Source: Sphingobacterium spiritivorum ATCC 33861 (GTDB lineage: Bacteria > Bacteroidota > Bacteroidia > Sphingobacteriales > Sphingobacteriaceae). From it: a stretch of 64,000 nucleotides of DNA. The position numbers and the translations under genes are program-made. Positions 15,552-28,642 of the stretch are shown here, one piece after another (positions within the stretch are counted from its first letter, which is position 1; the number at the start of each line of letters is the position of its first letter). The stretch covers positions 955,526-1,019,525 of the forward strand of contig NZ_GL379771.1 of the NCBI RefSeq assembly GCF_000143765.1, written 5' to 3'. Under the pieces are notes generated by a model. The model made no database searches and was not told the origin of the DNA. It worked only from the letters and a program-made list of their open reading frames with translations.

Positions 15552-16979
15552 TTACGATGCTTTTAACTTCTTCAGGATATCCTGTACATACGTTTTAAAC
15601 TTCTTGTCTGTTTCTATCAGATCTTCTACTGTCTGGCAGGCATATATCACTGTAGAGTGATCCCGTCCGCCAAAGAAGTTACCGATAGATTTCAAAGAAG
15701 ATTTAGTATGATTCTTTGCAAGATACATAGAGATCTGACGCGCTTGTACGATTTCACGTTTCCTAACTTTTGATTTCACCATTTCTACCGGAACTTCAAA
15801 ATACTCACATACCAGTTTCTGTATGTATTCCATTGAAATTTCCTTACTGGTATTCTTCACAAAGTTTTTCAGCATAGATTTAGCCAGGTTCAGGTCAATC
15901 TCCTTTTTGTTAAGGGTAGATTGCGCCAATAATGAAACCATGGCACCTTCTAATTCGCGGACACTGTTATCAATCTGATGCGCCACATACTCTACTACAT
16001 TTTCTGGCAATTCAATACCGTCAGAATACATTTTTTTCTTCAGGATTGCCATCCTTGTCTCCAGATCCGGAACCTGTATATCCGCGGATAATCCCCATTT
16101 AAAACGACTTAATAATCGTTCTTCCAATCCTGCCAGATCTTTAGGCGCCTTATCAGAAGTCAGAATAATCTGTTTACCCGACTGGTGAAGATGATTAAAG
16201 ATGTGGAAGAAAATGTCCTGGGTCTTCTCCTTACCGGCAAAATTGTGCACATCATCCATGATGATGACATCCATTGCCTGATAAAAATTCACAAAGTCAT
16301 TGATTGTATTATTCTTTAATGAATCTACAAACTGCTGACAGAATTTTTCACAGGATACATAGATAACCAACTTATCCGGGAGATTACGCTTGATCTCATT
16401 TCCAATGGCCTGGGATAAATGGGTTTTACCTAACCCTACATCTCCGTATAACATCAAAGGATTAAAAGAAGTTCCTCCGGGTTTATTTGCTACAGCAAAC
16501 CCTGCAGATCTTGCCAGTCTGTTACATTCACCTTCGATAAAATTATCAAAAGTATAATGCTGATTCAACTGTGGATCTACCTGTAACTTCTTTAATCCGG
16601 GAATAACAAAAGGATTCTTAATATTCTTATTCAAATTGACCGGCACCGGGATCGATTGACGTTTTCCTTCTGCACCGTTTCCATTTGACGGAATATTGGT
16701 TGTATAGGGTATATTGGTTGAAGATTTCTCCACCACAATATTATATTCCAACCTTCCCTGCTCTCCCAAAAATTTTTTGACCGTTTTACGTAAGATACCT
16801 ACATAATGTTCCTCAAGCCACTCGTAAAAAAATAAGCTCGGCACCTGAATAGTTAAAACGTTCTCATCAAGTTTCACCGCTTTCACCGGTTCAAACCAAG
16901 TCTTGAAACTTTGCGCAGGTATATTGTCTTTGATAATCTGAAGACAACTATTCCAAACACTTGTGTACGTTTTTTCCAT
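15552..16979 (-). CDS. dnaA: Chromosomal replication initiator DnaA
   Basis: AAA+ ATPase that binds DnaA boxes and melts oriC. The 475 residues show the N-terminal interaction domain (VWNSCLQIIKDNIPAQSFKTWFEPVKAV), Walker A LYGDVGLGKTHL, Walker B VIIMDDVHNF, sensor 2 region SVRELEGAM and the C-terminal helix-turn-helix with the signature GGRDHSTVIYACQTVEDLI. Monocistronic, with terminator. dnaN and gyrB are not adjacent, as is common in Bacteroidota, and the upstream region holds only one near-match DnaA box. Confidence 0.97.
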   Translation of the reverse strand: MEKTYTSVWNSCLQIIKDNIPAQSFKTWFEPVKAVKLDENVLTIQVPSLFFYEWLEEHYVGILRKTVKKFLGEQGRLEYNIVVEKSSTNIPYTTNIPSNGNGAEGKRQSIPVPVNLNKNIKNPFVIPGLKKLQVDPQLNQHYTFDNFIEGECNRLARSAGFAVANKPGGTSFNPLMLYGDVGLGKTHLSQAIGNEIKRNLPDKLVIYVSCEKFCQQFVDSLKNNTINDFVNFYQAMDVIIMDDVHNFAGKEKTQDIFFHIFNHLHQSGKQIILTSDKAPKDLAGLEERLLSRFKWGLSADIQVPDLETRMAILKKKMYSDGIELPENVVEYVAHQIDNSVRELEGAMVSLLAQSTLNKKEIDLNLAKSMLKNFVKNTSKEISMEYIQKLVCEYFEVPVEMVKSKVRKREIVQARQISMYLAKNHTKSSLKSIGNFFGGRDHSTVIYACQTVEDLIETDKKFKTYVQDILKKLKAS

Positions 16980-17362
16980 TCTAAAATTGTTAATAACTTG
17001 ATTTACAATATCTGACCAAAAAATTGTTCATAACTTTCTCTTAAAACGAAGATGGCAAAAAAAATTCAGCTAAAAAATTAAAAAGTAAAAAAATACACAA
17101 CGTATTAATAAACAATAACTTACATCATTTTTTAGAGATTTTTTACTAAAATTCACAGGCAAAATTTTAGTTTTCAACATCAGCTCTTATGATGGGCTCG
17201 ATACCCCCAATTTAGTAACTTTTATTGAATTTAAAAAATCAATGTGGAAAACTATGTTTTAAAATCGCGGCAAATTTTCAGATAATTTTATAAGTATAAA
17301 GCATAAAAAAGGAGTTGAAAATTTCAACTCCTTTTTTCAAATTTTAATATGGTATAATCTAT
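16980..17362. other. dnaA upstream region / dxs downstream region
   Basis: 383 bp without a gene. It holds the dxs terminator (17304-17337), the dnaA promoter region, and a single one-mismatch DnaA box (TGTGGAAAA at 17243-17251). That one box could serve dnaA autoregulation; it is too little for an origin. Confidence 0.6.
17304..17337 (-). terminator. Terminator of dxs
   Basis: The inverted repeat GGAGTTGAAA / TTTCAACTCC is flanked by A6 and T6, 26 bp past the dxs stop. It is functional in either direction by shape, but dxs is the gene feeding it. Confidence 0.85.
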
Positions 17363-19291
17363 CTATCCGACAAGAGAATCTGTTTTACGGATAGTGGATA
17401 ATTTTCTGCATTGCTCAGCAATAGCCTCCGCATCATAATGACACAAATTCCAAAGCTCTTTTTGCTCACCGTGCTCTACAATCTGATCTGGAATACCAAG
17501 ACGAACAACATGAGATTGATAACCATTATCTACCATAAATTCGAGTACTGCAGACCCCATTCCTCCCTGTAAACAACCATCCTCTACGGTGATCACTTTT
17601 TTATATTTACGGAAGACCTCGTGTAACAATTCTTTATCCAAAGGCTTGACAAATCGCAAATCGTAATGTGCCGGATAAATACCTTCTTCATTCAATACAC
17701 GAATTGCTTTTACAGCTTCGTTACCTATACTGCCAATGCTTAATATAGCAACCTCTTCTCCGTCCGATACTTTACGGCCTTTTCCGATTTCTATTTCTTT
17801 AAATGGTCTCTTCCAATCAGGCATTACCCCTGCACCGCGAGGATAACGGATCACAAATGGTCCTTTATTCTCCAATTGTGCCGTATACATCAGATTACGA
17901 AGTTCTTCCTCATTCATAGGAGCAGACACAATCATATTTGGTATACAACGCATATAGGCAAGATCGTATGCACCGTGATGTGTAGGACCATCTGCCCCTG
18001 CCACACCTGCACGGTCCAGACAGAATACCACATTCAGGTTTTGTAAGGCTACATCATGAATAACCTGGTCATACGCCCGTTGCATAAATGAAGAGTAGAT
18101 ATTACAAAATGGAAGTAATCCCTGTGTAGCCAGTCCAGCACTGAATGTAACAGCATGCTGTTCAGCAATACCTACGTCAAAAGCGCGGGTAGGCATAGCT
18201 TTCATCATGATATTCATGGAAGATCCTGACGGCATAGCCGGAGTAATTCCCATTATTTTCTTATTATTCTCAGCCAGCTCAACTAACGTATGTCCGAATA
18301 CGTCCTGATACTTAGGTGCAACAGGCTTGTCAGAAACAGATTTTTTAATTTCTCCTGTGATTTTGTCGAAAAGACCCGGTGCATGCCACAGTGTCTGATC
18401 TTTCTCGGCTAAAGCATATCCTTTACCTTTTACTGTAACGCAATGCAGAAGTTTCGGTCCCGGAATATGTTTAAGATCTTCCAGTGTTTTGGCTAATTTC
18501 TTGACATCATGTCCATCTACAGGTCCGAAATATCTGAAATTTAAAGATTCGAAAAGATTTGCATTCTTCAGCAGAGATCCCTTAATCCCACGTTCAAGCT
18601 TCTTAGCTATCCCAAGTGCATCTGGTCCCACCTCTGAGATTTTAGAAAGTACAGCAGCCAGATCATCTCTGAATCTGTTGTAACGTTTAGACGTCGTTAT
18701 ACTGGTCAGATATTCTTTCATCGCTCCTACATTCGGATCGATGGACATACAGTTATCATTTAGAATAACCAGTAAATTAGATTTCTCTATTCCGGCGTGA
18801 TTCAGCGCTTCAAAGGCCAATCCGGCAGTAAGTGCTCCATCTCCTATTACAGCTACATGCTGTCTGTCTTCTTCTCCTTTATAATGAGAAGCTACAGCCA
18901 TACCAAGAGCTGCTGATATAGATGTAGAAGAGTGACCTACACCAAAAGTATCATACTCACTTTCATTCCGGTTTGGAAAACCCGAAATACCATTTAGTAC
19001 CCGGTTTGTATCAAATACATCCCTTCTCCCCGTCAATATCTTGTGACCATAGGCCTGATGACCTACATCCCAGATCAATTGATCATAAGGTGTATTTAAC
19101 ACGTAATGAAGAGCAACGGTTAATTCTACTACCCCTAAACTTGCTGCAAAATGCCCTCCGTTCACGGAGACAATATCAATAATATATTGTCTAAGCTCTT
19201 TACATACCTGCAATAAATCTTCTTCCTTTAATTTCTTAAGATCTGAAGGAAAGTTTATTTTTTGCAATAGTTCTCCAGCTTCTACCTGCAT
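17363..19291 (-). CDS. dxs: 1-deoxy-D-xylulose-5-phosphate synthase
   Basis: Thiamine-diphosphate enzyme for the first step of the MEP isoprenoid pathway (pyruvate + glyceraldehyde 3-phosphate). The 642 residues match the family (about 620-645). Visible: [29 protein letters not shown], the TPP motif [18 protein letters not shown]...NDN, and in the C-terminal half [32 protein letters not shown] and [16 protein letters not shown]. Its product also supplies thiamine precursor; thiL lies one gene away but in a separate unit. Confidence 0.97.
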
Positions 19292-19437: not shown

Positions 19438-20226
19438 ATGAATGCAAGTGAGGGTTACGAAATTAAGTTAGACCAGTTTGAAGGTCCGTTTGATCTGCTG
19501 TTGTTTTTTATAGAGCGTGATGAATTGAATATCCATGATATAGCGATCTCTAAAATTACAGATGATTTTCTGGATTACATACAGAAGATGCAGGCTTTGA
19601 ATATAGAACTCGCGAGTGAGTTTATATTTGTAGCTTCTACCCTCATGCGTATCAAAGCTAAAATGCTTTTACCACGTCCTGATCTGGATGAAAATGAAAA
19701 TGAAATAGATCTTAAAAAGGAATTGGTACAAAAACTGATACTCTATAAACAGTTCAAAAATATTTGTGAAGATTTAAAGGGACTTGAAGAAAATCGTCTC
19801 AGGTATCATTTAAGAGGAAATATCGGTTATGATCTGAAGAATACTAACCGTCCTGTACAGGACGGAGAAGAATTGTCCTCATTCGATCTTTATAAACTGA
19901 TGATGGTATATGAACGTATGATGTACCATTATGCTAATCGTGTACAGGAAGTCAAACATACTGTTGTTAAGTATCCGTATACCATAGAACAACAAAAAAG
20001 AGTAATTAAAGAATTGATAGAAATGAATGAGAAACTGGATTTTAACAGTATCCGAAAGAGTTCAGAAAACAAAGTTCATTTCGTCTATAATTTTTTAGCT
20101 ATTCTCGAAATGCTGCAGCAACGCTTATTAGAGATTGAGGTAGGATTGGGATACAATAATTTTTGGGTTGAAAAAAAAGATCCCAATGTACCTGATCCGG
20201 AAGTACTGGAAATGGAAGAAAATTAA
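19438..20226 (+). CDS. scpA: Segregation and condensation protein A
   Basis: Kleisin subunit of the SMC-ScpAB condensin, which loads at ParB/parS near the origin and pairs chromosome arms. The 262 residues start with the kleisin signature YEIKLDQFEGPFDLLLFFIERDELNIHDIAISKITDDFLDYI, followed by LASEFIFVASTLMRIKAKMLLPRP, and end with the winged-helix region VHFVYNFLAILEMLQQRLLEIEVG. scpB is not adjacent. Single gene with its own promoter and a notable terminator shaped like parS. Confidence 0.95.
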   Translation: MNASEGYEIKLDQFEGPFDLLLFFIERDELNIHDIAISKITDDFLDYIQKMQALNIELASEFIFVASTLMRIKAKMLLPRPDLDENENEIDLKKELVQKLILYKQFKNICEDLKGLEENRLRYHLRGNIGYDLKNTNRPVQDGEELSSFDLYKLMMVYERMMYHYANRVQEVKHTVVKYPYTIEQQKRVIKELIEMNEKLDFNSIRKSSENKVHFVYNFLAILEMLQQRLLEIEVGLGYNNFWVEKKDPNVPDPEVLEMEEN

Positions 20227-20263
20227 AAAAGCAGCTGTTTCATGTGAAACAGCTGCTTTTTTT
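20225..20263 (+). terminator. scpA terminator with embedded parS-like palindrome
   Basis: The hairpin AAAAAAGCAGCTGTTTCA / TGTGAAACAGCTGCTTTTTTT sits 2 bp from the scpA stop. Its central 16 bp, TGTTTCATGTGAAACA at 20236-20251, differ from the parS consensus TGTTTCACGTGAAACA at one position. Terminator function is clear; the ParB-site reading is inference. Confidence 0.88.
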
Positions 20264-20280
20264 CTATAGTAATCACTACT

Positions 20281-21321
20281 TTACTTTTTAAAAGCATTCC
20301 AACCCTGAGCAGTTAAAGGATATACATTTCCGGATTTGGAAATCATTTCATACCCAGCATTTGGTTCGGTAATATATCCGATAACTGTTATATCTGGAAG
20401 ATTTCTAAGTTTATCATATGCTGACTGTGGAACTGTAAACAACAATTCATAATCTTCCCCTCCGTTTAATGCACAAACAGTAGGATCTAAACCAAATTCA
20501 CGGGCAGTATCATATGTCATCTGATCTAACGGAATTTTGTCTTCATATAATTTACATCCTTTATCAGACTGTTTACAGATATGAATGATCTCCGAAGCCA
20601 GACCATCTGATACATCTATCATAGCATTTGGTTTGATATCCAGGCTATCTAATAGTTGAACAATATCTTTACGGGCCTCAGGTTTCAACTGACGCTCGAT
20701 GATATAATCTTTTCCTTCCAAATCCGGCTGAATTTTAGGATTATCTAAAAATACCTGCTTTTCACGCTCCAGAATCTGCAATCCTACATAAGCAGCTCCG
20801 AGATCTCCGGAAACACAAAGTAGATCACCTTCCTGAGCACCTGAACGATAAGCTATTCTGTCTTCATCTGCGTATCCTATACTCGTTACAGAGATAATTA
20901 ATCCCTGAGCAGAAGCTGAAGTATCTCCGCCTACAAGATCTACATTGAATTTTTTACAGGCAATCAATGCTCCTTCATAGATTTCTTCAACTGCTTCTAA
21001 AGGAAATTTAGAGGATAATCCTATTGAAAAAGTGATCTGAGAGGCTATACCATTCATTGCATATATATCACTCAGATTTACCTGTACAGCTTTGTATCCC
21101 AGGTGTTTAAGCGGAACATAACGCAGATCAAAATGAATTCCTTCTAACAATAAGTCAGTAGAAATAAGTGTTTTCTTATTTGAAAAATCCAATACAGCTG
21201 CATCATCCCCTATTCCTTTTATTGTAGACTTTTCGTTCAGTTCCACATGTTTGGTTAAGTGTTCAATTAAACCAAATTCACCCATCTGATCCAGATTTGT
21301 TCTTTCTGTATTTTCAAACAT
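20281..21321 (-). CDS. thiL: Thiamine-monophosphate kinase
   Basis: ATP-dependent kinase making thiamine diphosphate from thiamine monophosphate. 346 residues with the PurM/ThiL-type N-terminal motif GEFGLIEHLTKHV...KGIGDDAAVLD, DLLLEGIHFDL, the glycine-rich VNLSDIYAMNG and GGDTSASAQGLIISVTSIG segments, and VSDGLASEIIHICKQS plus LNGGEDYELLFTV further on. The metal-binding Asp residues of GDD and SDG are kept. Transcribed after nadA, 37 bp downstream of its stop. Confidence 0.95.
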   Translation of the reverse strand: MFENTERTNLDQMGEFGLIEHLTKHVELNEKSTIKGIGDDAAVLDFSNKKTLISTDLLLEGIHFDLRYVPLKHLGYKAVQVNLSDIYAMNGIASQITFSIGLSSKFPLEAVEEIYEGALIACKKFNVDLVGGDTSASAQGLIISVTSIGYADEDRIAYRSGAQEGDLLCVSGDLGAAYVGLQILEREKQVFLDNPKIQPDLEGKDYIIERQLKPEARKDIVQLLDSLDIKPNAMIDVSDGLASEIIHICKQSDKGCKLYEDKIPLDQMTYDTAREFGLDPTVCALNGGEDYELLFTVPQSAYDKLRNLPDITVIGYITEPNAGYEMISKSGNVYPLTAQGWNAFKK

Positions 21322-21358: not shown

Positions 21359-22357
21359 TTACAATCCTAATCTTTCTGAAATCTCCAGCATACGTTCAAT
21401 CGGCTTTTGAGCCCGTAAAATAACGTCTTCCGGAAGTGTAATTTCAGGAGATTCAAACTTGAGACAGTTGTAAAGTTTTTCTAAAGTATTAAGCTTCATG
21501 TGCGGGCAATCGTTACATGCACATGCATTATTCGGAGGTGCCGGAATAAAAGTCTTTTCGAGACTCGCTTTTTGCATCTGATGAATAATACCGGATTCAG
21601 TAGCAACGATATAAACCTGCGACGGATCATTCATTGTAAATTTGAGCATACCAGAAGTAGATCCTACATAATCAGCACCTGCTAAAATATGATCCTCACA
21701 CTCCGGATGTGCAATAAACTTAGCATCCGGATATTCAATGCGCAAAGCATCAATTTTATCCTGCGAAAAAATCTCATGTACCATACATGCACCGTTCCAC
21801 AAGATCAGATCTCTGCCCGTCTTCTTTTTAACATAAGCACCCAGATTGCGATCCGGACCAAAAATTATTTTTTGATCTAAAGGAAGGCTTTCTACGATCT
21901 GCACCGCATTACTGGAAGTACATACAATGTCTGATAGCGCTTTAAGCTCAGCTGTACAGTTTACATAAGTTATGACCAGGTGATCAGGATATTTCTCTTT
22001 AAACTTGGCAAACAAATGAGGAGGACAACTATCTGATAATGAACATCCTGCCTTCAGATCGGGTAATAATACCTTTTTTGAAGGGGATAATATCTTAGCC
22101 GTTTCAGCCATAAAGTGCACACCAGCAAACACAATCACATCTGCATCTGTCTTGGCAGCCTGTTGGGAAAGTCCCAAACTATCGCCTATATAATCCGCAA
22201 TATCCTGAATTTCAGACTCTTGGTAATAATGAGCCAGAATAACAGCATTCTTTTCCTTTTTGAGGCGATTAATTTCTTCTACGAGATCAATTGTCGGATC
22301 AATAGCAACATCTATGTATCCTTTTGCTTCCAGATCTCTTTCATAAGTAATATTCAT
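21359..22357 (-). CDS. nadA: Quinolinate synthase A
   Basis: [4Fe-4S] enzyme that condenses iminoaspartate (made by NadB) with dihydroxyacetone phosphate to quinolinate, the NAD precursor. 332 residues; cluster cysteines are visible in [54 protein letters not shown] and [44 protein letters not shown] is the family opening. It is divergent from nadB across the 491-bp region I propose as oriC, which may also hold a shared regulatory site. Confidence 0.97.
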
Positions 22358-22848
22358 TTCCGTGTTGATAAAATTTAAGTCAACGATTCAGACGGTATCA
22401 CTTCACAAAAGTAGCGAAAGAATTTGAAACGAAATCCACATTCCCTTTTTTCAATAATTAATAACTCTTTTTATAAAAAGGAGACTTATTGTTTATTAGT
22501 GTGTGGAAAATGGGGAAAGTTTTGAGAATTTATATTTGCGATTGTTACTTTTAACATAGTTATCCACATTTATTCACATCTAAAGTTTATAAATAGAGCT
22601 GATTTTCAGATATATGAAAATTGTCCGTTTTGGTTTTCCATATTTCAGTGTGAATTGTTTGTTGTTTATATTTTGTTAATAATGGGGTAAAGTTGTGGTT
22701 ATAATTTGTTCACAATGGCTCGATTTTTTGTGGAAATGTGGAATAAAAAATAGTTTTCATTTTTAATTCACCATTTATCTACACGTTATCCACATATTTT
22801 GTTAATTTGTTATCTGAAAAACTTGATTTTTAATACGCATTAGTATTT
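22358..22848. other. Candidate chromosomal origin (oriC)
   Basis: Gene-free AT-rich region between divergent nadA and nadB. Exact DnaA boxes (TTATNCACA): 22560-22568, 22570-22578 and 22786-22794. One-mismatch boxes: 22502-22510 (minus strand, TTTTCCACA), 22706-22714 (TTGTTCACA) and 22775-22783 (TTATCTACA). Two weaker matches lie near 22433 and 22735. The first exact pair is directly repeated at 10-bp (one helical turn) spacing. Long A/T runs between boxes could be the unwinding element. scpA, dnaA, mnmG and two parS-like sites lie within 7 kb on either side. On the plus strand C tends to exceed G to the left and G to exceed C to the right, by spot reading. Confidence 0.68.
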
Positions 22849-24441
22849 ATGGGAGATCGCAAGGTTGATTTTTTGATTATTGGTTCCGGAATTGCTGGTT
22901 TGAGCTTTGCTTTGAAGGCTGCAAAAAAAGGTAAAGTATTGATAGTCACTAAGTCTAATGAAGATGAGTCTAATACCAAATATGCACAGGGCGGTGTAGC
23001 TGCCGTTGTGGATAAGTCTGATAGCTTTGATAAGCATATACTTGATACTCAGATAGCTGGGGATGGATTATGCCATGTGGAAATTGTGGAAAACGTTGTT
23101 AGGGAAGGACCGGAACGTATTGCGGAGCTTATTGCATACGGAACTAACTTCGATAAGGTGGATGATGACAGTTATGATCTGGCAAAAGAAGGTGGCCATT
23201 CCAAACACCGTATTTTGCACTATAAAGATATAACAGGGTATGAAATTGAACGTGCTTTACTTGCTAAAGTACATCAGGATCCTAATATTGAGATACTTAC
23301 ACATTATTTCGCAGTCGATTTAATTACGCAGCACCATTTAGGTGAATTTGTGGATAAAAAATCAGACGATATTAAGTGTTTTGGTATTTATGCGCTGAAT
23401 ACAAAGAATCACCGTATTGAAAAGATTTTGAGCCGGATTACCTTAATGGCTTCCGGAGGTGCGGGACATGTGTACTCCAGTACTACTAATCCTACTATAG
23501 CTACAGGCGATGGTATAGCTATGGTCTACCGTGCGAAAGGTAAAGTACGTAATATGGAGTTTATTCAGTTCCATCCTACAGCACTTTATAACCCCAGTCA
23601 ATATCCGGCATTTCTTGTTTCAGAGGCTGTACGCGGTTTTGGCGGGATTCTGCGACGTGTTTCAGGTGAGTCCTTTATGGAGGAGTATGATGAACGCGGG
23701 TCGTTGGCACCGCGTGATATCGTGGCAAGAGCAATAGATGCTGAGATGAAAAAGTCAGGTATCGATTATGTATACCTGGATATTACGATGCGTAGTAAGG
23801 AGGATATCTTAGCGCATTTTCCAAATATCTATGAGAAATGTTTATCCATAGGATTGGATATGACGAAAGATTATATTCCTGTATCTCCGGCTGCTCATTA
23901 TTTATGTGGTGGAATTCTTGTAGATGCATACGGGCGTAGTACTATTAATAATCTGTACGCATGTGGTGAATGTTCTTCCACTGGTCTTCATGGTGCTAAC
24001 AGATTAGCTTCCAATTCATTACTGGAAGCGGCTGTATATGCTCACCGGATATGGCTGGATGCTGCAGAGAAATTAGAAGATATTGATTTTCAGGATAATA
24101 TACCTGATTGGGATGATTCCAATACAAGTTTATCGAATGAGGATATTCTGGTTTCTCACAATCTTCGGGAGACACAAAAAGTGATGTCTGATTATGTTGG
24201 CATTGTACGTTCTGACTTCAGATTGGATCGTGCATTCAGAAGACTCGGATTTTTGTATGATGAGACAGAGGAGTTTTATAAGCATACCAAATTATCTGTA
24301 CCACTTTGTGAATTGAGAAACGTTATTCAGGTTGCTTTTTTGGTTATTAAGTCAGCTCAGGATCGCAAAGAAAGCAGAGGATTGCATTATTCAACGGATT
24401 ATCCTTATCATGCTGATGTATTAAAGGACACTATATTTTAG
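22849..24441 (+). CDS. nadB: L-aspartate oxidase
   Basis: FAD enzyme oxidising L-aspartate to iminoaspartate, feeding NadA. 530 residues: dinucleotide-binding FLIIGSGIAGLSFALKAAKKGKVLIVTK, the family's NTKYAQGGVAAV, EGGHSKHRILHYKDITG with catalytic residues, FIQFHPTAL, and the C-terminal HGANRLASNSLLEAAVYAHRI. It is separated from nadA by the candidate oriC. The gamma carbonic anhydrase gene starts 7 bp after its stop, so the two are co-transcribed. Confidence 0.97.
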   Translation: MGDRKVDFLIIGSGIAGLSFALKAAKKGKVLIVTKSNEDESNTKYAQGGVAAVVDKSDSFDKHILDTQIAGDGLCHVEIVENVVREGPERIAELIAYGTNFDKVDDDSYDLAKEGGHSKHRILHYKDITGYEIERALLAKVHQDPNIEILTHYFAVDLITQHHLGEFVDKKSDDIKCFGIYALNTKNHRIEKILSRITLMASGGAGHVYSSTTNPTIATGDGIAMVYRAKGKVRNMEFIQFHPTALYNPSQYPAFLVSEAVRGFGGILRRVSGESFMEEYDERGSLAPRDIVARAIDAEMKKSGIDYVYLDITMRSKEDILAHFPNIYEKCLSIGLDMTKDYIPVSPAAHYLCGGILVDAYGRSTINNLYACGECSSTGLHGANRLASNSLLEAAVYAHRIWLDAAEKLEDIDFQDNIPDWDDSNTSLSNEDILVSHNLRETQKVMSDYVGIVRSDFRLDRAFRRLGFLYDETEEFYKHTKLSVPLCELRNVIQVAFLVIKSAQDRKESRGLHYSTDYPYHADVLKDTIF

Positions 24442-24448
24442 AACGTAT

Positions 24449-24964
24449 ATGGCTGTTATATTACCTGTTAAGGATAAATATCCCCAATATCCGGAAGATT
24501 GCTTTATAGCGCCTAATGCGACCATTGTAGGCGATGTAGTTATGGGGGATAAGTGTTCGGTATGGTTTAATGCCGTGATCAGAGGTGACGTAAACTATAT
24601 CCGTATAGGAGCATATACCAATATCCAGGATGGTGCTGTGATTCATTGTACTTACCAAAAGAATGGAACGGATATAGGAAGTTATGTCAATATAGGTCAT
24701 CAGGCAATGGTACACGGTTGTATAGTCAAAGATTATGTATTGATCGGTATGGGCGCCATTGTTATGGATAAGGCAATAGTAGAGAGTGAAGTTATTATTG
24801 CGGCAGGAGCCGTCGTACTCGAAAATACAATTTGTGAATCAGGCTATCTGTATGCAGGTGTACCTGCTAAAAAAATAAAAGCGATAACTGATGAACAAAG
24901 AGAAATGTTACATCAGTTACCGCATAATTATGTGTTATATAGTTCCTGGTTTGAAAACAGTTAA
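24449..24964 (+). CDS. Gamma-class carbonic anhydrase-like protein
   Basis: 171-residue left-handed beta-helix protein with hexapeptide repeats (NATIVGDVVMGDKCSVWFNAVIRGDVNYIRIGAYTNIQDGAVIHCTY...). The three zinc-ligand histidine positions of the gamma-CA/YrdA group are visible (VIHCT, NIGHQAMVHG). Cytoplasmic trimer by family; carbonic anhydrase activity is not proven for all members. Its stop codon overlaps the stop of the convergent lipoprotein gene within a shared TTAA. Confidence 0.9.
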   Translation: MAVILPVKDKYPQYPEDCFIAPNATIVGDVVMGDKCSVWFNAVIRGDVNYIRIGAYTNIQDGAVIHCTYQKNGTDIGSYVNIGHQAMVHGCIVKDYVLIGMGAIVMDKAIVESEVIIAAGAVVLENTICESGYLYAGVPAKKIKAITDEQREMLHQLPHNYVLYSSWFENS

Positions 24965-26637
24965 TTTATATTGACAGTTTCATTTTGTTCCCAGTTGGCA
25001 CGTATCGTAAATGTTTTATTAAGATACCATATGTTCTCTGCCTGCTTTCTGGTCTTTACATCTGCAGGATCCCATACTCCATTCCTGTTGGCATCAAATA
25101 TTACACGTAAGGAATATTTGCCTCCCGGAAATTTCTTGTAGGATATGGTGTTATTAGACCCTAGTATCTGCCTGTTAAATACTTTTTCTTTCTTGTCATC
25201 AATAAGTTCAACCACATATTGCATGGTACTGTCTGTATTGGTAAAATTAAAGTTTATATCACCGTAATTTTCGCTTTCATCCAATGTAAAATTGGTTTTG
25301 AGCTCCTTATTGTGATCCCCGAATAATCCCGTAAGGGCTTTTTCTTCTAATACTAATGTATAATTCCTTTTAGGTTTCCAGTTAAAACGAATGTGGTAAA
25401 GCTGATCATTAAGGGTATCCTTTTGTAATTGGAAATTAGTTCTGGCAACGCTATCTTCTGTTAGTTTGACTTTAGACTTATCTATAGACGCTAAAGGTAT
25501 TTTAGAAGTAACGGTGATGTGGGTAATCTTATCTACTTTATTATTTATATTGAGAACCGGTTGAATTTCTTTTTCAAACTTCATATTAACACCTTTTTTT
25601 ATTAATACAGTGTCCATGACCGTATTATAATTACGTATCTCCAGTTTAAGAGAGTCAAAGTCAGTATTTTGAGTGTATATTAAGGCACTATCTTTATTTA
25701 CGCCATAGCGTACATATTTGGATGCATCCAGTTCCTGAGGAGATAATATTTTCACAGCCGGGTCAAGCAATGGCCGGTTAAATACCAACTGTACTCCCCC
25801 ATCCTTTTCCAGTTTCTTTTCACCGGTTCTGAATTTATCAGGATAGGGTTTAGTAAATTCCAGCTTAATATTACTGGTATCTTTCCTTAATACGATGCTG
25901 TCATTGAGAAATCCGATCCAGTCATCCGTACTTTCATATATGCGATTACTGCTTTTCTCTTTCAAAGCATATATACGGTATGTATCTTCCCTCAGGTTAT
26001 TGAATTTGAAATTACCAGCTGTATCTACAGCTGTAAATATGTTCGCTTTACGCTTTCCGAATATGCTATCCTGGCGTGTGGGAATCAGAATTACCATAAC
26101 ATCTTTGTCCTCATTCTTCATATCGAGACTCTTCGTATAGCCGTTAAGAACCGATCCGGATATAGACAGGGAATCCAGCTCATTACCTGTCGCAAATACA
26201 TACGAATAGTTGGGAAGCGGATTACCTTCATTGTAATCGACAAGCCCTTTTCCAAAATGAATCGTATAAGTGGTATTTTCTTCTAATGAATCTGGTAATG
26301 TTATTTCGAGATTCTTTTTCTTGATTTTATATTCTGGTTGAGTATCTACATCCGGAGATATGCTGAATTCTTTAAACTGACTGTTTAGTTTGACATACTC
26401 ATCAAATTGCAAAACTATTTTTTTTGCTTTGAAATTCCGGCTATAATTTTTTGGTAGTTCACTTAATATTTTTGGAGGAAGTGAATCTTTTGGTCCGCCG
26501 GTAGGGTGTTGCATGTTGGCGCACTGAATCGTACTTAAAATAAGAAGACAAAAAAACGAGAAAATTACCACTTTTTGAAATAAGGTGTTTTTTATCGATT
26601 CTGAGCGACTTTTATCTTTTTTGGATGTTTGTATCAT
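24961..26637 (-). CDS. Ig-like (Big_5) domain lipoprotein
   Basis: 558-residue predicted lipoprotein: a charged N-terminus of 22 residues, then VVIFSFFCLLILSTIQC with the acylated Cys at 39, followed by ANMQHPTGGPKDSLPPKIL, a hallmark start of the Bacteroidota Big_5 lipoproteins. The first about 110 mature residues form the Big_5 Ig-like domain (IVLQFDEYVKLNSQFKEFSISPD ... YTIHFGKGLVDYNEGNPLPNYSYVFATG). Later beta-rich domains follow, one with a calcium-like loop DANRNGVWDPADV. Cell-surface or periplasmic; function unknown. Convergent overlap with the carbonic anhydrase gene. Confidence 0.82.
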   Translation of the reverse strand: MIQTSKKDKSRSESIKNTLFQKVVIFSFFCLLILSTIQCANMQHPTGGPKDSLPPKILSELPKNYSRNFKAKKIVLQFDEYVKLNSQFKEFSISPDVDTQPEYKIKKKNLEITLPDSLEENTTYTIHFGKGLVDYNEGNPLPNYSYVFATGNELDSLSISGSVLNGYTKSLDMKNEDKDVMVILIPTRQDSIFGKRKANIFTAVDTAGNFKFNNLREDTYRIYALKEKSSNRIYESTDDWIGFLNDSIVLRKDTSNIKLEFTKPYPDKFRTGEKKLEKDGGVQLVFNRPLLDPAVKILSPQELDASKYVRYGVNKDSALIYTQNTDFDSLKLEIRNYNTVMDTVLIKKGVNMKFEKEIQPVLNINNKVDKITHITVTSKIPLASIDKSKVKLTEDSVARTNFQLQKDTLNDQLYHIRFNWKPKRNYTLVLEEKALTGLFGDHNKELKTNFTLDESENYGDINFNFTNTDSTMQYVVELIDDKKEKVFNRQILGSNNTISYKKFPGGKYSLRVIFDANRNGVWDPADVKTRKQAENIWYLNKTFTIRANWEQNETVNIN

Positions 26638-26714: not shown

Positions 26715-28574
26715 TTAACTCATGTGCACCATTAAAACACTAATATCAGCTGGTGAAACACCCGAAATACGGGATGCCTGTCCCAGTGTTCTTGGTTTGA
26801 CCTTTAATAATTTTTGTCTGGCTTCTATAGAAAGTGAAGTTAGAGAATTGTAATCGAAATTCGGATTGATCTCTTTATCTTCCATTTTTTTCATACGGTT
26901 GACTATCTCCATTTCTTTTTCAAAATAGCTGTCGTATTTTACTTTTATTTCTGCCTGCTCTATTGTTTCTTTATCAAACTGGTTGAGATAGCTTTCAAAA
27001 TCACTATCCGCTTTTTTGATATCATAAATATTAATCTGCGGTCTGCTTAATATATTAAACATTCTGGTTTTTTGCGAAACCGGAGAAGAGTTAAGATCTT
27101 CCAATACCGGATTAATGTGATCAGCTGTCACACTGTTTTGTCTTAAATACTCTACAATAGCATCTGAATTTTTTATTTTTTCGTTTACTTTATTAAGTCT
27201 CTCCTCTCCTACCAGACCCAGTTTATAAGCCATTGGTGTAAGACGAATATCTGCATTATCCTGACGTAACAGTAAGCGGTGCTCTGCTCTGGATGTAAAC
27301 ATTCTATAAGGTTCTTCAGTTCCTTTTGTGACGAGGTCATCAATCAGAACACCTATATAAGATTCTGAACGTTTTAGCGTCAGTTCATGAAGATCATTTA
27401 TTCTCTGGTGAGCATTTATACCTGCTATGAATCCCTGTGCTCCTGCCTCTTCGTATCCTGTAGTTCCATTTATTTGACCCGCAAAAAACAGGTGTTTTAT
27501 ACGCAGTGTTTCAAGTGTCAGATCCAATTGCATCGGTGGGAAGAAATCATATTCGATTGCATAACCCGGTCTGTACATTCTGGCATTTTCAAATCCGGGT
27601 ATCAGTTGCAAAGCTTTTTGTTGTACATCTTCAGGAAGAGAAGTAGAAAATCCATTAACGTATATTTCTACAGTATTGAATCCTTCCGGTTCTACAAATA
27701 TCTGATGTCTTTCGCGTTCTGCAAATCTGTTTATTTTGTCTTCTATGGATGGGCAATATCTGGGACCTAATCCTTTTATTCTTCCTGTAAACATTGGAGA
27801 TCTTTCGAATCCTGTTTTCAGCATTTCATGAACTTTGTCATTAGTATAGGTTATCCAGCAGCATCTTTGTGCTGTAGGAATAGGGACATCCGTATAGGAA
27901 AATCTTCCTTTATTCTCATCTCCCCATTGCTCTTCCATTAGCTCATAATTGAGCGATCTGCCGTCTATACGGGGTGGCGTTCCGGTCTTCATTCTACCGG
28001 ATTCAAAACCCAGACTTACCAGTTGTTCAGTGAGGCCTGTGGCTGCTTTCTCTCCTGTGCGCCCTCCGCCGAATTTCTTTTCTCCTATATGGATCACCCC
28101 GTTCAGGAAAGTTCCGTTTGTCAGAACTACTGCATCAGCTTCTATTCGTATTCCCAGAGAAGTAATGACTCCGGCAGCTTTATCACCTTCTACAATGACT
28201 TCTTTTACGGTGTCCTGCCACATGTCCAGATTGGGGATTGCTTCCAGTTGCATTCTCCATTCTTCTGCAAAGCGCATTCTGTCATTTTGTGATCGCGGAC
28301 TCCACATAGCAGGGCCTTTTGACAGGTTAAGCATTCTGAATTGTAGTGTGGATTTGTCTGCTATGATACCTGTGTATCCACCCATAGCATCGATCTCTCT
28401 TACAATCTGACCCTTTGCTACACCCCCTATAGCAGGATTACAGCTCATCTGAGCGATGACACCCATATTCATGGTAATCAACAATACAGACGATCCCAGG
28501 TTCGCTGCTGCTGCTGCTGCTTCACATCCGGCATGACCGGCACCTACTACAATTACGTTATATTTCTTAAACAT
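26715..28574 (-). CDS. mnmG: tRNA uridine 5-carboxymethylaminomethyl modification enzyme MnmG
   Basis: FAD-dependent partner of MnmE that installs cmnm5 on U34 of certain tRNAs (formerly gidA). 619 residues with FAD motif VIVVGAGHAGCEAAAAAANLG, GGVAKGQIVREIDAMGG, NGTFLNGVIHIGEKKFGGGRTGE (with the family Cys region PRYCPSIEDKI), and GQINGTTGYEEAGAQGFIAG. The C-terminal helical MnmE-binding domain ends SRISGVSPADISVLMVHM. mnmG is a classical origin-proximal gene, which agrees with the oriC candidate 4 kb away. Two parS-like sites lie directly upstream. Confidence 0.97.
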   Translation of the reverse strand: MFKKYNVIVVGAGHAGCEAAAAAANLGSSVLLITMNMGVIAQMSCNPAIGGVAKGQIVREIDAMGGYTGIIADKSTLQFRMLNLSKGPAMWSPRSQNDRMRFAEEWRMQLEAIPNLDMWQDTVKEVIVEGDKAAGVITSLGIRIEADAVVLTNGTFLNGVIHIGEKKFGGGRTGEKAATGLTEQLVSLGFESGRMKTGTPPRIDGRSLNYELMEEQWGDENKGRFSYTDVPIPTAQRCCWITYTNDKVHEMLKTGFERSPMFTGRIKGLGPRYCPSIEDKINRFAERERHQIFVEPEGFNTVEIYVNGFSTSLPEDVQQKALQLIPGFENARMYRPGYAIEYDFFPPMQLDLTLETLRIKHLFFAGQINGTTGYEEAGAQGFIAGINAHQRINDLHELTLKRSESYIGVLIDDLVTKGTEEPYRMFTSRAEHRLLLRQDNADIRLTPMAYKLGLVGEERLNKVNEKIKNSDAIVEYLRQNSVTADHINPVLEDLNSSPVSQKTRMFNILSRPQINIYDIKKADSDFESYLNQFDKETIEQAEIKVKYDSYFEKEMEIVNRMKKMEDKEINPNFDYNSLTSLSIEARQKLLKVKPRTLGQASRISGVSPADISVLMVHMS

Positions 28575-28582
28575 TTTATTTT

Positions 28583-28598
28583 AGTTTCACGTGGAACA
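28583..28598. promoter_or_regulatory. parS-like ParB-binding site 1
   Basis: AGTTTCACGTGGAACA matches the general bacterial parS pattern TGTTNCACGTGNAACA at 15 of 16 positions (outermost base differs). It lies 9 bp upstream of the mnmG start. Confidence 0.72.
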
Positions 28599-28626: not shown

Positions 28627-28642
28627 AGTTTCACGTGGAACG
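28627..28642. promoter_or_regulatory. parS-like ParB-binding site 2
   Basis: AGTTTCACGTGGAACG shares the 14-bp core GTTTCACGTGGAAC with site 1, 44 bp away. Both lie in the 76-bp gap between the ABC-F gene and mnmG. Confidence 0.72.

What the first reader, a model, noticed from the sequence alone, without database searches (positions are those of the whole stretch)
22358..22848. Probable chromosomal origin between nadA and nadB, not beside dnaA
Seen: three exact TTATNCACA boxes (22560, 22570, 22786), three one-mismatch boxes and long A/T runs in 491 bp between divergent genes; only one near-match box occurs upstream of dnaA. Known: DnaA binds TTATNCACA, and mnmG, parS and scpA loading sites cluster near origins. 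Inferred: this is oriC, displaced about 5 kb from dnaA, and nadA/nadB divergence has preserved it. Spot reading suggests G/C bias switches sign around here.
Basis: partly seen in the sequence, partly recalled or inferred. Interest (0 to 1): 0.75.

Follow-up and report, generated by a model that had tools for sequence, protein, structure and literature searches.

The report
Chromosomal origin between nadA and nadB
The gap between two NAD-synthesis genes in this bacterium is very probably where its chromosome starts to be copied, a spot that its relatives also seem to use and that may reach into the neighbouring nadB gene; it is a well-supported new example of a known kind of site.

Summary
Confirmed: the 491-bp gap between divergent nadA and nadB holds three exact and five one-mismatch DnaA boxes (0 of 5000 shuffles reach three exact). 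In the nearest held genome (G001, 96% identical here) this is the only cluster of three or more TTATCCACA within 1 kb. In four of five complete genus genomes the local cumulative GC-skew minimum lies 362-398 bp before nadB; the fifth is not pinpointed; dnaA fits worse in all five, trivially so in the fifth. In other genera dnaA is 0.38-0.92 Mb away in the 7 of 36 genomes where both genes share a contig, and 18 pooled named loci still switch at nadA/nadB while 34 outside the family do not. Beyond the finding: boxes inside nadB at +158 and +236 recur above codon expectation, never outside the family, so the origin may extend into nadB; and where nadA lies 1.7-3.3 kb away, boxes stay with nadB. 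An oriC far from dnaA is already called common in Bacteroidetes (PMC4755523), and an oriC was predicted in a Pedobacter draft genome (PMC4683228). No replication or binding data were available.

The parts
22358..22848 (.). nadA-nadB intergene, main part of the proposed oriC; the 500 bp before nadB are 73% A+T
   Evidence: skew minimum at the corresponding place in G001, G007, G013, G017
22485..22517 (-). Conserved block with an inverted TTTTCCACA box (22502-22510) next to an A/T-rich stretch; by distance from nadB, the skew minimum of four genomes lies at the edge of this block or up to about 35 bp outside it
   Evidence: 21-base conservation up to 0.93 against a gap mean of 0.72
22560..22578 (+). 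Tandem exact DnaA boxes TTATCCACA and TTATTCACA, starts 10 bp apart
   Evidence: paired exact boxes 11 bp apart also in G003, G005, G010 and G012
22672..22680 (+). TTTGTTAAT, one of only two copies in the window (the other at 22798)
22775..22794 (+). Phased boxes TTATCTACA and TTATCCACA, starts 11 bp apart
   Evidence: a + strand TTWTNCACA box 51-67 bp before nadB in 23 of 24 genus genomes
22786..22814 (+). Most conserved stretch of the gap: box followed by A/T-rich TATTTTGTTAATTTGTTA; candidate unwinding element
   Evidence: 0.95 conservation in 21-base windows over 22786-22809; core found in 18 of 19 genus genomes but not as such in the rest of the family; unwinding role inferred
23007..23015 (-). 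Exact DnaA box inside nadB (+158)
   Evidence: a TTWTNCACA box here in 17 of 25 genus and 24 of 40 other family nadB sequences (expected 1.45 and 2.95 from residues and codon use), 0 of 44 outside the family
23085..23093 (-). TTTTCCACA box inside nadB (+236)
   Evidence: 23 of 25 genus (expected 2.05), 3 of 40 other family (0.30), 0 of 45 outside
23349..23357 (-). Exact DnaA box inside nadB (+500)
   Evidence: 12 of 25 genus (expected 4.54), 12 of 40 other family (3.70), 0 of 45 outside
21359..22357 (-). nadA, quinolinate synthase
   Evidence: TIGR00550, 411.8 bits
22849..24441 (+). nadB, L-aspartate oxidase; its first ~510 bp carry the embedded boxes
   Evidence: TIGR00551, 545.4 bits
15552..16979 (-). 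dnaA, initiator gene, 5.4 kb from the gap
   Evidence: TIGR00362, 529.5 bits
20236..20251 (.). parS-like palindrome TGTTTCATGTGAAACA, one mismatch to the recalled consensus
28583..28598 (.). Second parS-like site, two mismatches, just beyond mnmG

Best explanation
The gap between nadA and nadB, probably together with the first ~510 bp of nadB, is the chromosomal replication origin (oriC) of this Sphingobacteriaceae bacterium. DnaA binds the phased box pairs (22560/22570 and 22775/22786) and the opposed boxes at 22502 and inside nadB. It then opens an adjacent A/T-rich stretch, probably TATTTTGTTAATTTGTTA after 22794 or the A/T run beside 22502, and the helicase is loaded there for bidirectional replication. 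Shown here: box clustering, conservation, skew switch, recurrence in the family. Inferred: DnaA binding, the place of unwinding, helicase loading.
For: Box clustering: 3 exact boxes in the gap, 0 of 5000 shuffles. In G001 (5,275,260 bp, 90 TTATCCACA sites) the only cluster of three or more within 1 kb is here, four sites in 798 bp; 0 of 20000 random placements give four within 798 bp. In G007 the only such cluster among its 95 sites is also here. Skew: local cumulative minimum 383, 398, 365 and 362 bp before nadB in G001, G007, G017, G013. A change point at 4-fold sites, corrected for gene strand, fits the gap better than dnaA by 8.0, 8.1, 3.8, 7.4 and 0.6 log units in G001, G007, G017, G013, G005. 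Coarse samples of G001 are zero or negative in 8 of 8 below 1.91 Mb and positive in 8 of 10 from 2.16 to 4.61 Mb; G007 is negative in 5 of 5 samples below the locus and positive in 5 of 5 above. Family: 18 loci of other genera with no dnaA in the stretch held give a pooled switch best placed at nadB's start (gain 51.7), while 34 loci outside the family gain 0.6 there. G138, with dnaA 381 kb away, switches at the gap (z 4.1). Conservation.
Against: The window's own assembly is not held, so chromosome-scale evidence comes from relatives. G005 does not pinpoint the gap: minimum 8.3 kb into the nadB side, flat from 2 to 37 kb, coarse samples without a clear pattern. In other genera only 17 of 30 genomes have any TTWTNCACA within 440 bp before nadB, the genus core sequence is not recognised there (6 of 132 genomes match it with 2-3 mismatches, position not checked), and the single-locus switch is clear in only 10 of 18. 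G068 is inconclusive after gene-strand correction at both nadB (z 0.9) and dnaA (z 1.0). Oligomer orientation in G138, G068 and G089 did not settle the place. No DnaA-trio run of four or more. The gap is not the least stable DNA of the window; at the 450-bp scale the dnaA-dxs region is.
Confidence: 0.88

Rival explanations
1. oriC is the region just upstream of dnaA, as in many bacteria, and the nadA-nadB boxes are secondary.
For: The dnaA-dxs gap has three one-mismatch boxes and holds the least stable 450-bp stretch of the window. In 29 other-genus genomes the 440 bp upstream of dnaA hold 8 strict boxes against 0.7 in shuffles. In G068 the prevailing TTATCCACA orientation changes near dnaA, not near nadB.
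Against: The change point fits worse at dnaA in five of five complete genus genomes, by 0.6 to 8.1 log units. No exact box stands upstream of dnaA in the window. In other genera the pooled switch is at nadB although dnaA does not match in the stretch held. The dnaA boxes can be explained by autoregulation of dnaA (recalled).
Confidence: 0.05
2. The gap is only a conserved promoter/regulatory region of nadA and nadB, with DnaA perhaps acting as a transcription factor.
For: It lies between divergent genes, where conserved regulatory DNA is expected; divergent genes also create a local skew minimum by themselves. A conserved stretch at 22435-22457 carries no box of the TTWTNCACA form.
Against: The switch survives correction for gene strand. 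In G017, where nadA is 3.15 kb away, the minimum stays 365 bp before nadB. Boxes recur inside the coding part of nadB.
Confidence: 0.03
3. The boxes form a DnaA-titrating or reactivating site close to the true origin (datA- or DARS-like, recalled), not the origin itself.
For: Box clusters alone cannot separate the two; parS-like sites stand near.
Against: The skew switch is resolved to about 1-2 kb (within 3 log units) in G001 and G013 and falls on the box cluster.
Confidence: 0.04

Closest known systems
Bacteroidetes oriC distant from dnaA, e.g. the predicted oriC of Prevotella intermedia chromosome I (PMC4755523, passages seen)
   Same: DnaA-box cluster at a skew transition, dnaA elsewhere; the paper says this is common in the phylum according to DoriC
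   Different: Here the site is tied to nadA/nadB, is traced across a family, and boxes continue inside nadB
Ori-Finder oriC prediction in the draft genome of Pedobacter sp. Hv1 (PMC4683228, passages seen)
   Same: Same family; predicted oriC of 447 bp (contig 12, 65,484-65,930), about the size of the nadA-nadB gap in Pedobacter loci (roughly 400-610 bp)
   Different: The passages seen name no neighbouring genes, so whether it is the same place was not tested
E. coli oriC beside mnmG/gidA (recalled)
   Same: mnmG is close (3.9 kb here), dnaA is not adjacent, box array with an A/T-rich stretch
   Different: Immediate neighbours are nadA and nadB; 13-mers and IHF/Fis sites were not tested
Basal unwinding system of B. 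subtilis oriC: tandem boxes, spacer, DnaA-trios (PMC8287927, passages seen)
   Same: Tandem boxes followed by A/T-rich DNA
   Different: No run of four or more DnaA-trios found here

Membership tests
Bacterial chromosomal origin (oriC) | Cluster of DnaA boxes above chance | tested here: met
Bacterial chromosomal origin (oriC) | GC-skew sign switch at the site | tested here: met
   4 of 5 complete genus genomes, the fifth not pinpointed; pooled family loci. Base-level skew over a whole chromosome was not computed
Bacterial chromosomal origin (oriC) | A/T-rich unwinding element next to the boxes | tested here: inconclusive
   500 bp before nadB are 73% A+T and the gap holds some of the least stable 1% of windows, but other gaps are less stable
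Bacterial chromosomal origin (oriC) | Conservation in relatives | tested here: met
   weaker outside the genus
Bacterial chromosomal origin (oriC) | Replication starts here in cells; DnaA binds and unwinds | not testable with these tools
   No read-depth, binding or plasmid data
DnaA-trio basal unwinding system | Run of DnaA-trios next to a box | tested here: not met
   No run of >=4 in 22358-23400 on either strand; shorter or degenerate trios not excluded

The most novel reading that the evidence does not exclude
A family-wide origin that is partly written inside a NAD-synthesis gene: DnaA boxes in the first ~510 bp of nadB are part of oriC and have shaped both codons and residues (VVDK at codons 53-56 in 18 of 25 genus and 37 of 40 other family sequences, other residues outside the family). 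The origin stays with nadB while nadA and dnaA have moved relative to it.
Probability: 0.5. Interest if true: 0.55.

Novelty: new member of a known kind. Interest (0 to 1): 0.42.

Why it matters
It gives a precise, testable oriC for a family of Bacteroidota; at least four complete records examined start at dnaA (4 of 40 genomes), although in one of them (G138) the proposed origin is 381 kb away. It supplies natural experiments (dnaA near or far, nadA near or far) that separate the origin from its usual neighbours. If the nadB-embedded boxes are functional, it is a clean case of an origin constraining a protein-coding gene at codon and residue level.

Tried and rejected
oriC at dnaA: rejected because change points fit worse there in five complete genomes and the pooled switch in other genera is at nadB. 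Preservation by nadA/nadB divergence: rejected because 8 of 23 genus genomes have nadA 1.7-3.3 kb off. DnaA-trios: no run of four. Duplex stability: does not single out this gap. Oligomer orientation as a substitute for skew in G138, G068 and G089: inconclusive. In G068 the TTATCCACA orientation changes near dnaA rather than nadB; the pattern is not a balanced two-replichore one, so I give it little weight. G068's raw 20-kb skew V at nadA/nadB (minimum 317604) was not significant after gene-strand correction (z 0.9). Raw upstream-against-gene-side skew at nadB (29 of 29 other-genus genomes, against 15 of 29 at dnaA) is confounded by gene direction and not used. Rfam on five loci with long nadA-nadB gaps: no match. 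DNA match in the plasmid collection: none. Six nadA loci of other families of the class: a TTWTNCACA box in three of six, one exact, no cluster. Nine paper searches gave no paper placing the origin at nadA/nadB; of most hits I saw only the listing and the start of the abstract, the library lacks most subscription journals, and the DoriC tables were not available.

Slips and dropped rows: one search read minus-strand loci in the wrong orientation; its box lists are not used (redone). One search stopped with an error at the fourth of nine genomes (reading frames redone). In one search one dnaA locus (L262) was dropped for lack of upstream sequence. In one search identical, short or N-bearing coding sequences were dropped, leaving 25 genus (window included), 40 family and 45 outside, and one outside sequence with a gap at +158. 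In one search three short family loci (L036, L042, L044) and outside loci under 18 kb were dropped; L031, L052 and L053 were not in the family set. In one search G022 was left out (contig edge).

Full report
What is there. The window is Sphingobacteriaceae DNA: its NadB is 91% identical to that of 'Sphingobacteriaceae bacterium DW12' and 81% to that of Sphingobacterium faecale, so the genus is probably Sphingobacterium (inference). Its own assembly is not held; the nearest genome, G001, is one contig of 5,275,260 bp, 96% identical over nadA-nadB. Genes were named by NCBIfam: dnaA 15552-16979 (-), dxs 17363-19291 (-), scpA-like 19438-20226 (+; below the curated cut-offs), thiL 20281-21321 (-), nadA 21359-22357 (-), nadB 22849-24441 (+), a gamma carbonic anhydrase-like gene (below its cut-off), an unnamed gene 24961-26637 (-), mnmG 26715-28574 (-) and an ABC-F family gene.

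The observation. The three exact boxes are real and beyond chance (3 against a shuffle mean of 0.043; 0 of 5000 reach 3), and there are five one-mismatch boxes in the gap, not three. Upstream of dnaA there are three one-mismatch boxes, not one. Two further exact boxes lie inside nadB at 23007 and 23349.

Clustering on a whole chromosome. G001 has 90 TTATCCACA sites; four lie in 798 bp at this locus and no other place has three or more within 1 kb. None of 20000 random placements of 90 sites gives four within 798 bp. G007 has 95 sites, all listed, and its only cluster of three is here. G005 has three here too, but only 55 of its 77 sites were listed; the sites of G013 and G017 were not listed, and each has a single exact TTATCCACA near nadB.

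Skew. Over 400 kb of G001 the cumulative GC-skew minimum is at 2143551, inside the gap; the window's own minimum is at about 22467. Minima lie 383, 398, 365 and 362 bp before nadB in G001, G007, G017 and G013. In G005 the minimum is 8.3 kb into the nadB side and the profile is flat from 2 to 37 kb. Because divergent genes make a local minimum by themselves, I fitted a change point at 4-fold degenerate sites with gene strand as a covariate. Best places (1-kb grid) are 2144001 in G001 (within 3 log units: 2143001-2145001), 2796001 in G007 (2793001-2797001), inside the gap in G013, and intervals that contain the gap but are broad in G017 (15 kb) and G005 (35 kb). The gap fits better than the dnaA upstream region by 8.0, 8.1, 3.8, 7.4 and 0.6 log units (G001, G007, G017, G013, G005). 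Twenty 20-kb samples of G001: 8 of 8 below 1.91 Mb are zero or negative, 8 of 10 from 2.16 to 4.61 Mb are positive, the last two slightly negative. G007 is negative in 5 of 5 samples below the locus and positive in 5 of 5 above; G013 and G017 agree where sampled, apart from two near-zero samples of G013; G005 shows no clear pattern.

Separation from neighbours. In 13 of 24 genus genomes dnaA was inside the fetched stretch, its start 5.9-12.4 kb from that of nadB. Of 23 genomes with a measured nadA-nadB gap, 14 have 473-496 bp, one has 856 bp and eight have 1.7-3.3 kb (the 3.3 kb of G006 is nearer 3.2 kb because its nadA match is cut short). In nine genomes with the longer gap there is no stop-free stretch beyond 95 codons, and five loci had no Rfam match. 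In G017 the skew minimum stays 365 bp before nadB although nadA is 3.15 kb off. So the origin travels with nadB.

Other genera of the family. All 36 genomes examined from 11 other genera have nadB and dnaA. In 7 of the 36 both lie on one contig and are far apart: about 381 kb in G138 (dnaA at base 1), 730 kb in G068, 893 kb in G089, 680 kb in G154, 695 kb in G053, 738 kb in G118 and 915 kb in G125; in the other 29 they are on different contigs and the distance is unknown (coordinates). Eighteen named loci of Pedobacter, Mucilaginibacter and kin, in none of which dnaA matched within the stretch held (about 10 kb on each side), give a pooled gene-strand-corrected switch with its best place at nadB's start (gain 51.7 at 0, 50.6 at -500), while 34 loci outside the family give 0.6 there and at most 9.2 anywhere. 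Per locus the switch is clear (z of 2 or more) in 10 of 18 and absent in several (L032, L039, L048, L051). G138 switches at the gap (z 4.1); G068 is inconclusive at nadB (z 0.9) and at dnaA (z 1.0).

Box conservation. Strict TTATNCACA within 500 bp before nadB is in 12 of 24 genus genomes, TTWTNCACA in 24 of 24, and the + strand box 51-67 bp before nadB in 23 of 24. The best-conserved stretch is 22786-22809 (0.95 in 21-base windows against a gap mean of 0.72; window plus 23 genomes). The core TTWTCCACATWTTTTGTTAATTTG with up to 3 mismatches is in 18 of 19 genus genomes but in only 6 of 132 other family genomes, there with 2-3 mismatches and unchecked position; it is a genus-level, not a family-level, sequence. 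In 30 other-genus genomes the 440 bp before nadB hold 31 TTWTNCACA (shuffles 3.8) and the first 600 bp of nadB hold 40 (shuffles 2.6); 17 and 24 of the 30 have at least one. The same stretches at dnaA hold 19 (shuffles 2.3) and 1 in 29 genomes.

Boxes inside nadB. Given the residues and each group's codon use, a TTWTNCACA box at +158 is expected in 1.45 of 25 genus sequences and seen in 17; in other genera expected 2.95 of 40, seen 24; outside the family 0 of 44. At +236: 23 of 25 against 2.05 in the genus, 3 of 40 against 0.30 in other genera, 0 of 45 outside. At +500: 12 of 25 against 4.54, 12 of 40 against 3.70, 0 of 45. At +566: 2 of 25 against 0.93, 7 of 40 against 1.86, 0 of 45. Against a simple reading: the sequences are related, so the ratios overstate independence; outside the family the residues differ, so the box could not form there and that group is no control for codon choice; and among 314 conserved codon columns the box codons rank 5th, 10th and 14th for codon fixation, not first. 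The facts fit an origin that has shaped the gene, but do not prove function.

Mechanism. Shown: box array, conservation, skew switch. Inferred: DnaA binds the phased pairs (starts 10 and 11 bp apart) and the opposed boxes, and opens adjacent A/T-rich DNA. No DnaA-trio run was found, so the B. subtilis-type unwinding element described in PMC8287927 (passages seen) is not recognised here. Parts of the conserved block near nadA (22400-22457) may be the nadA promoter (inference).

What is known. PMC4755523 (passages seen) reports a predicted oriC away from dnaA in Prevotella intermedia and says that in Bacteroidetes oriC is commonly far from dnaA according to DoriC. PMC4683228 (passages seen) reports an Ori-Finder oriC of 447 bp in contig 12 of the draft genome of Pedobacter sp. 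Hv1, without naming neighbours in those passages; it may well be this site. The position away from dnaA is therefore not new as a kind, and single predictions in the family exist. My nine searches gave no paper that places the family's origin at nadA/nadB or describes boxes inside nadB; most hits were seen as listings only. I file this as a new member of a known kind, with the nadB-embedded boxes as its most unusual feature.

Noticed in passing
G009, G016, G018, G023, G006, G017: between nadA and nadB (L221, L227, L228, L233, L219, L165-L166): About 2.8-3.2 kb of A/T-rich DNA (GC about 0.28) without long reading frames; 79-91% alike over its length among G009, G016, G018 and G023, and 82% alike between G006 and G017, but alike only in parts between the two sets. 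Role unknown.
   Followed up: partly
window 20236-20251, 28583-28598, 28627-28642: parS-like palindromes with 1, 2 and 3 mismatches flank the origin; two of the three sites with at most 2 mismatches in 400 kb of G001 correspond to the first two of these.
   Followed up: partly
window 16917-17366: Least stable 450-bp stretch of the window, covering the dnaA-dxs gap with its three one-mismatch boxes; probably dnaA autoregulation (inference).
   Followed up: partly
G101, G120, G163, G138: These single-contig records start at dnaA base 1, although in G138 the proposed origin is 381 kb away.
   Followed up: no
G007 whole chromosome: TTATCCACA itself looks strand-biased and seems to change its prevailing orientation at the nadA/nadB locus (list, read by eye).
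   Followed up: partly
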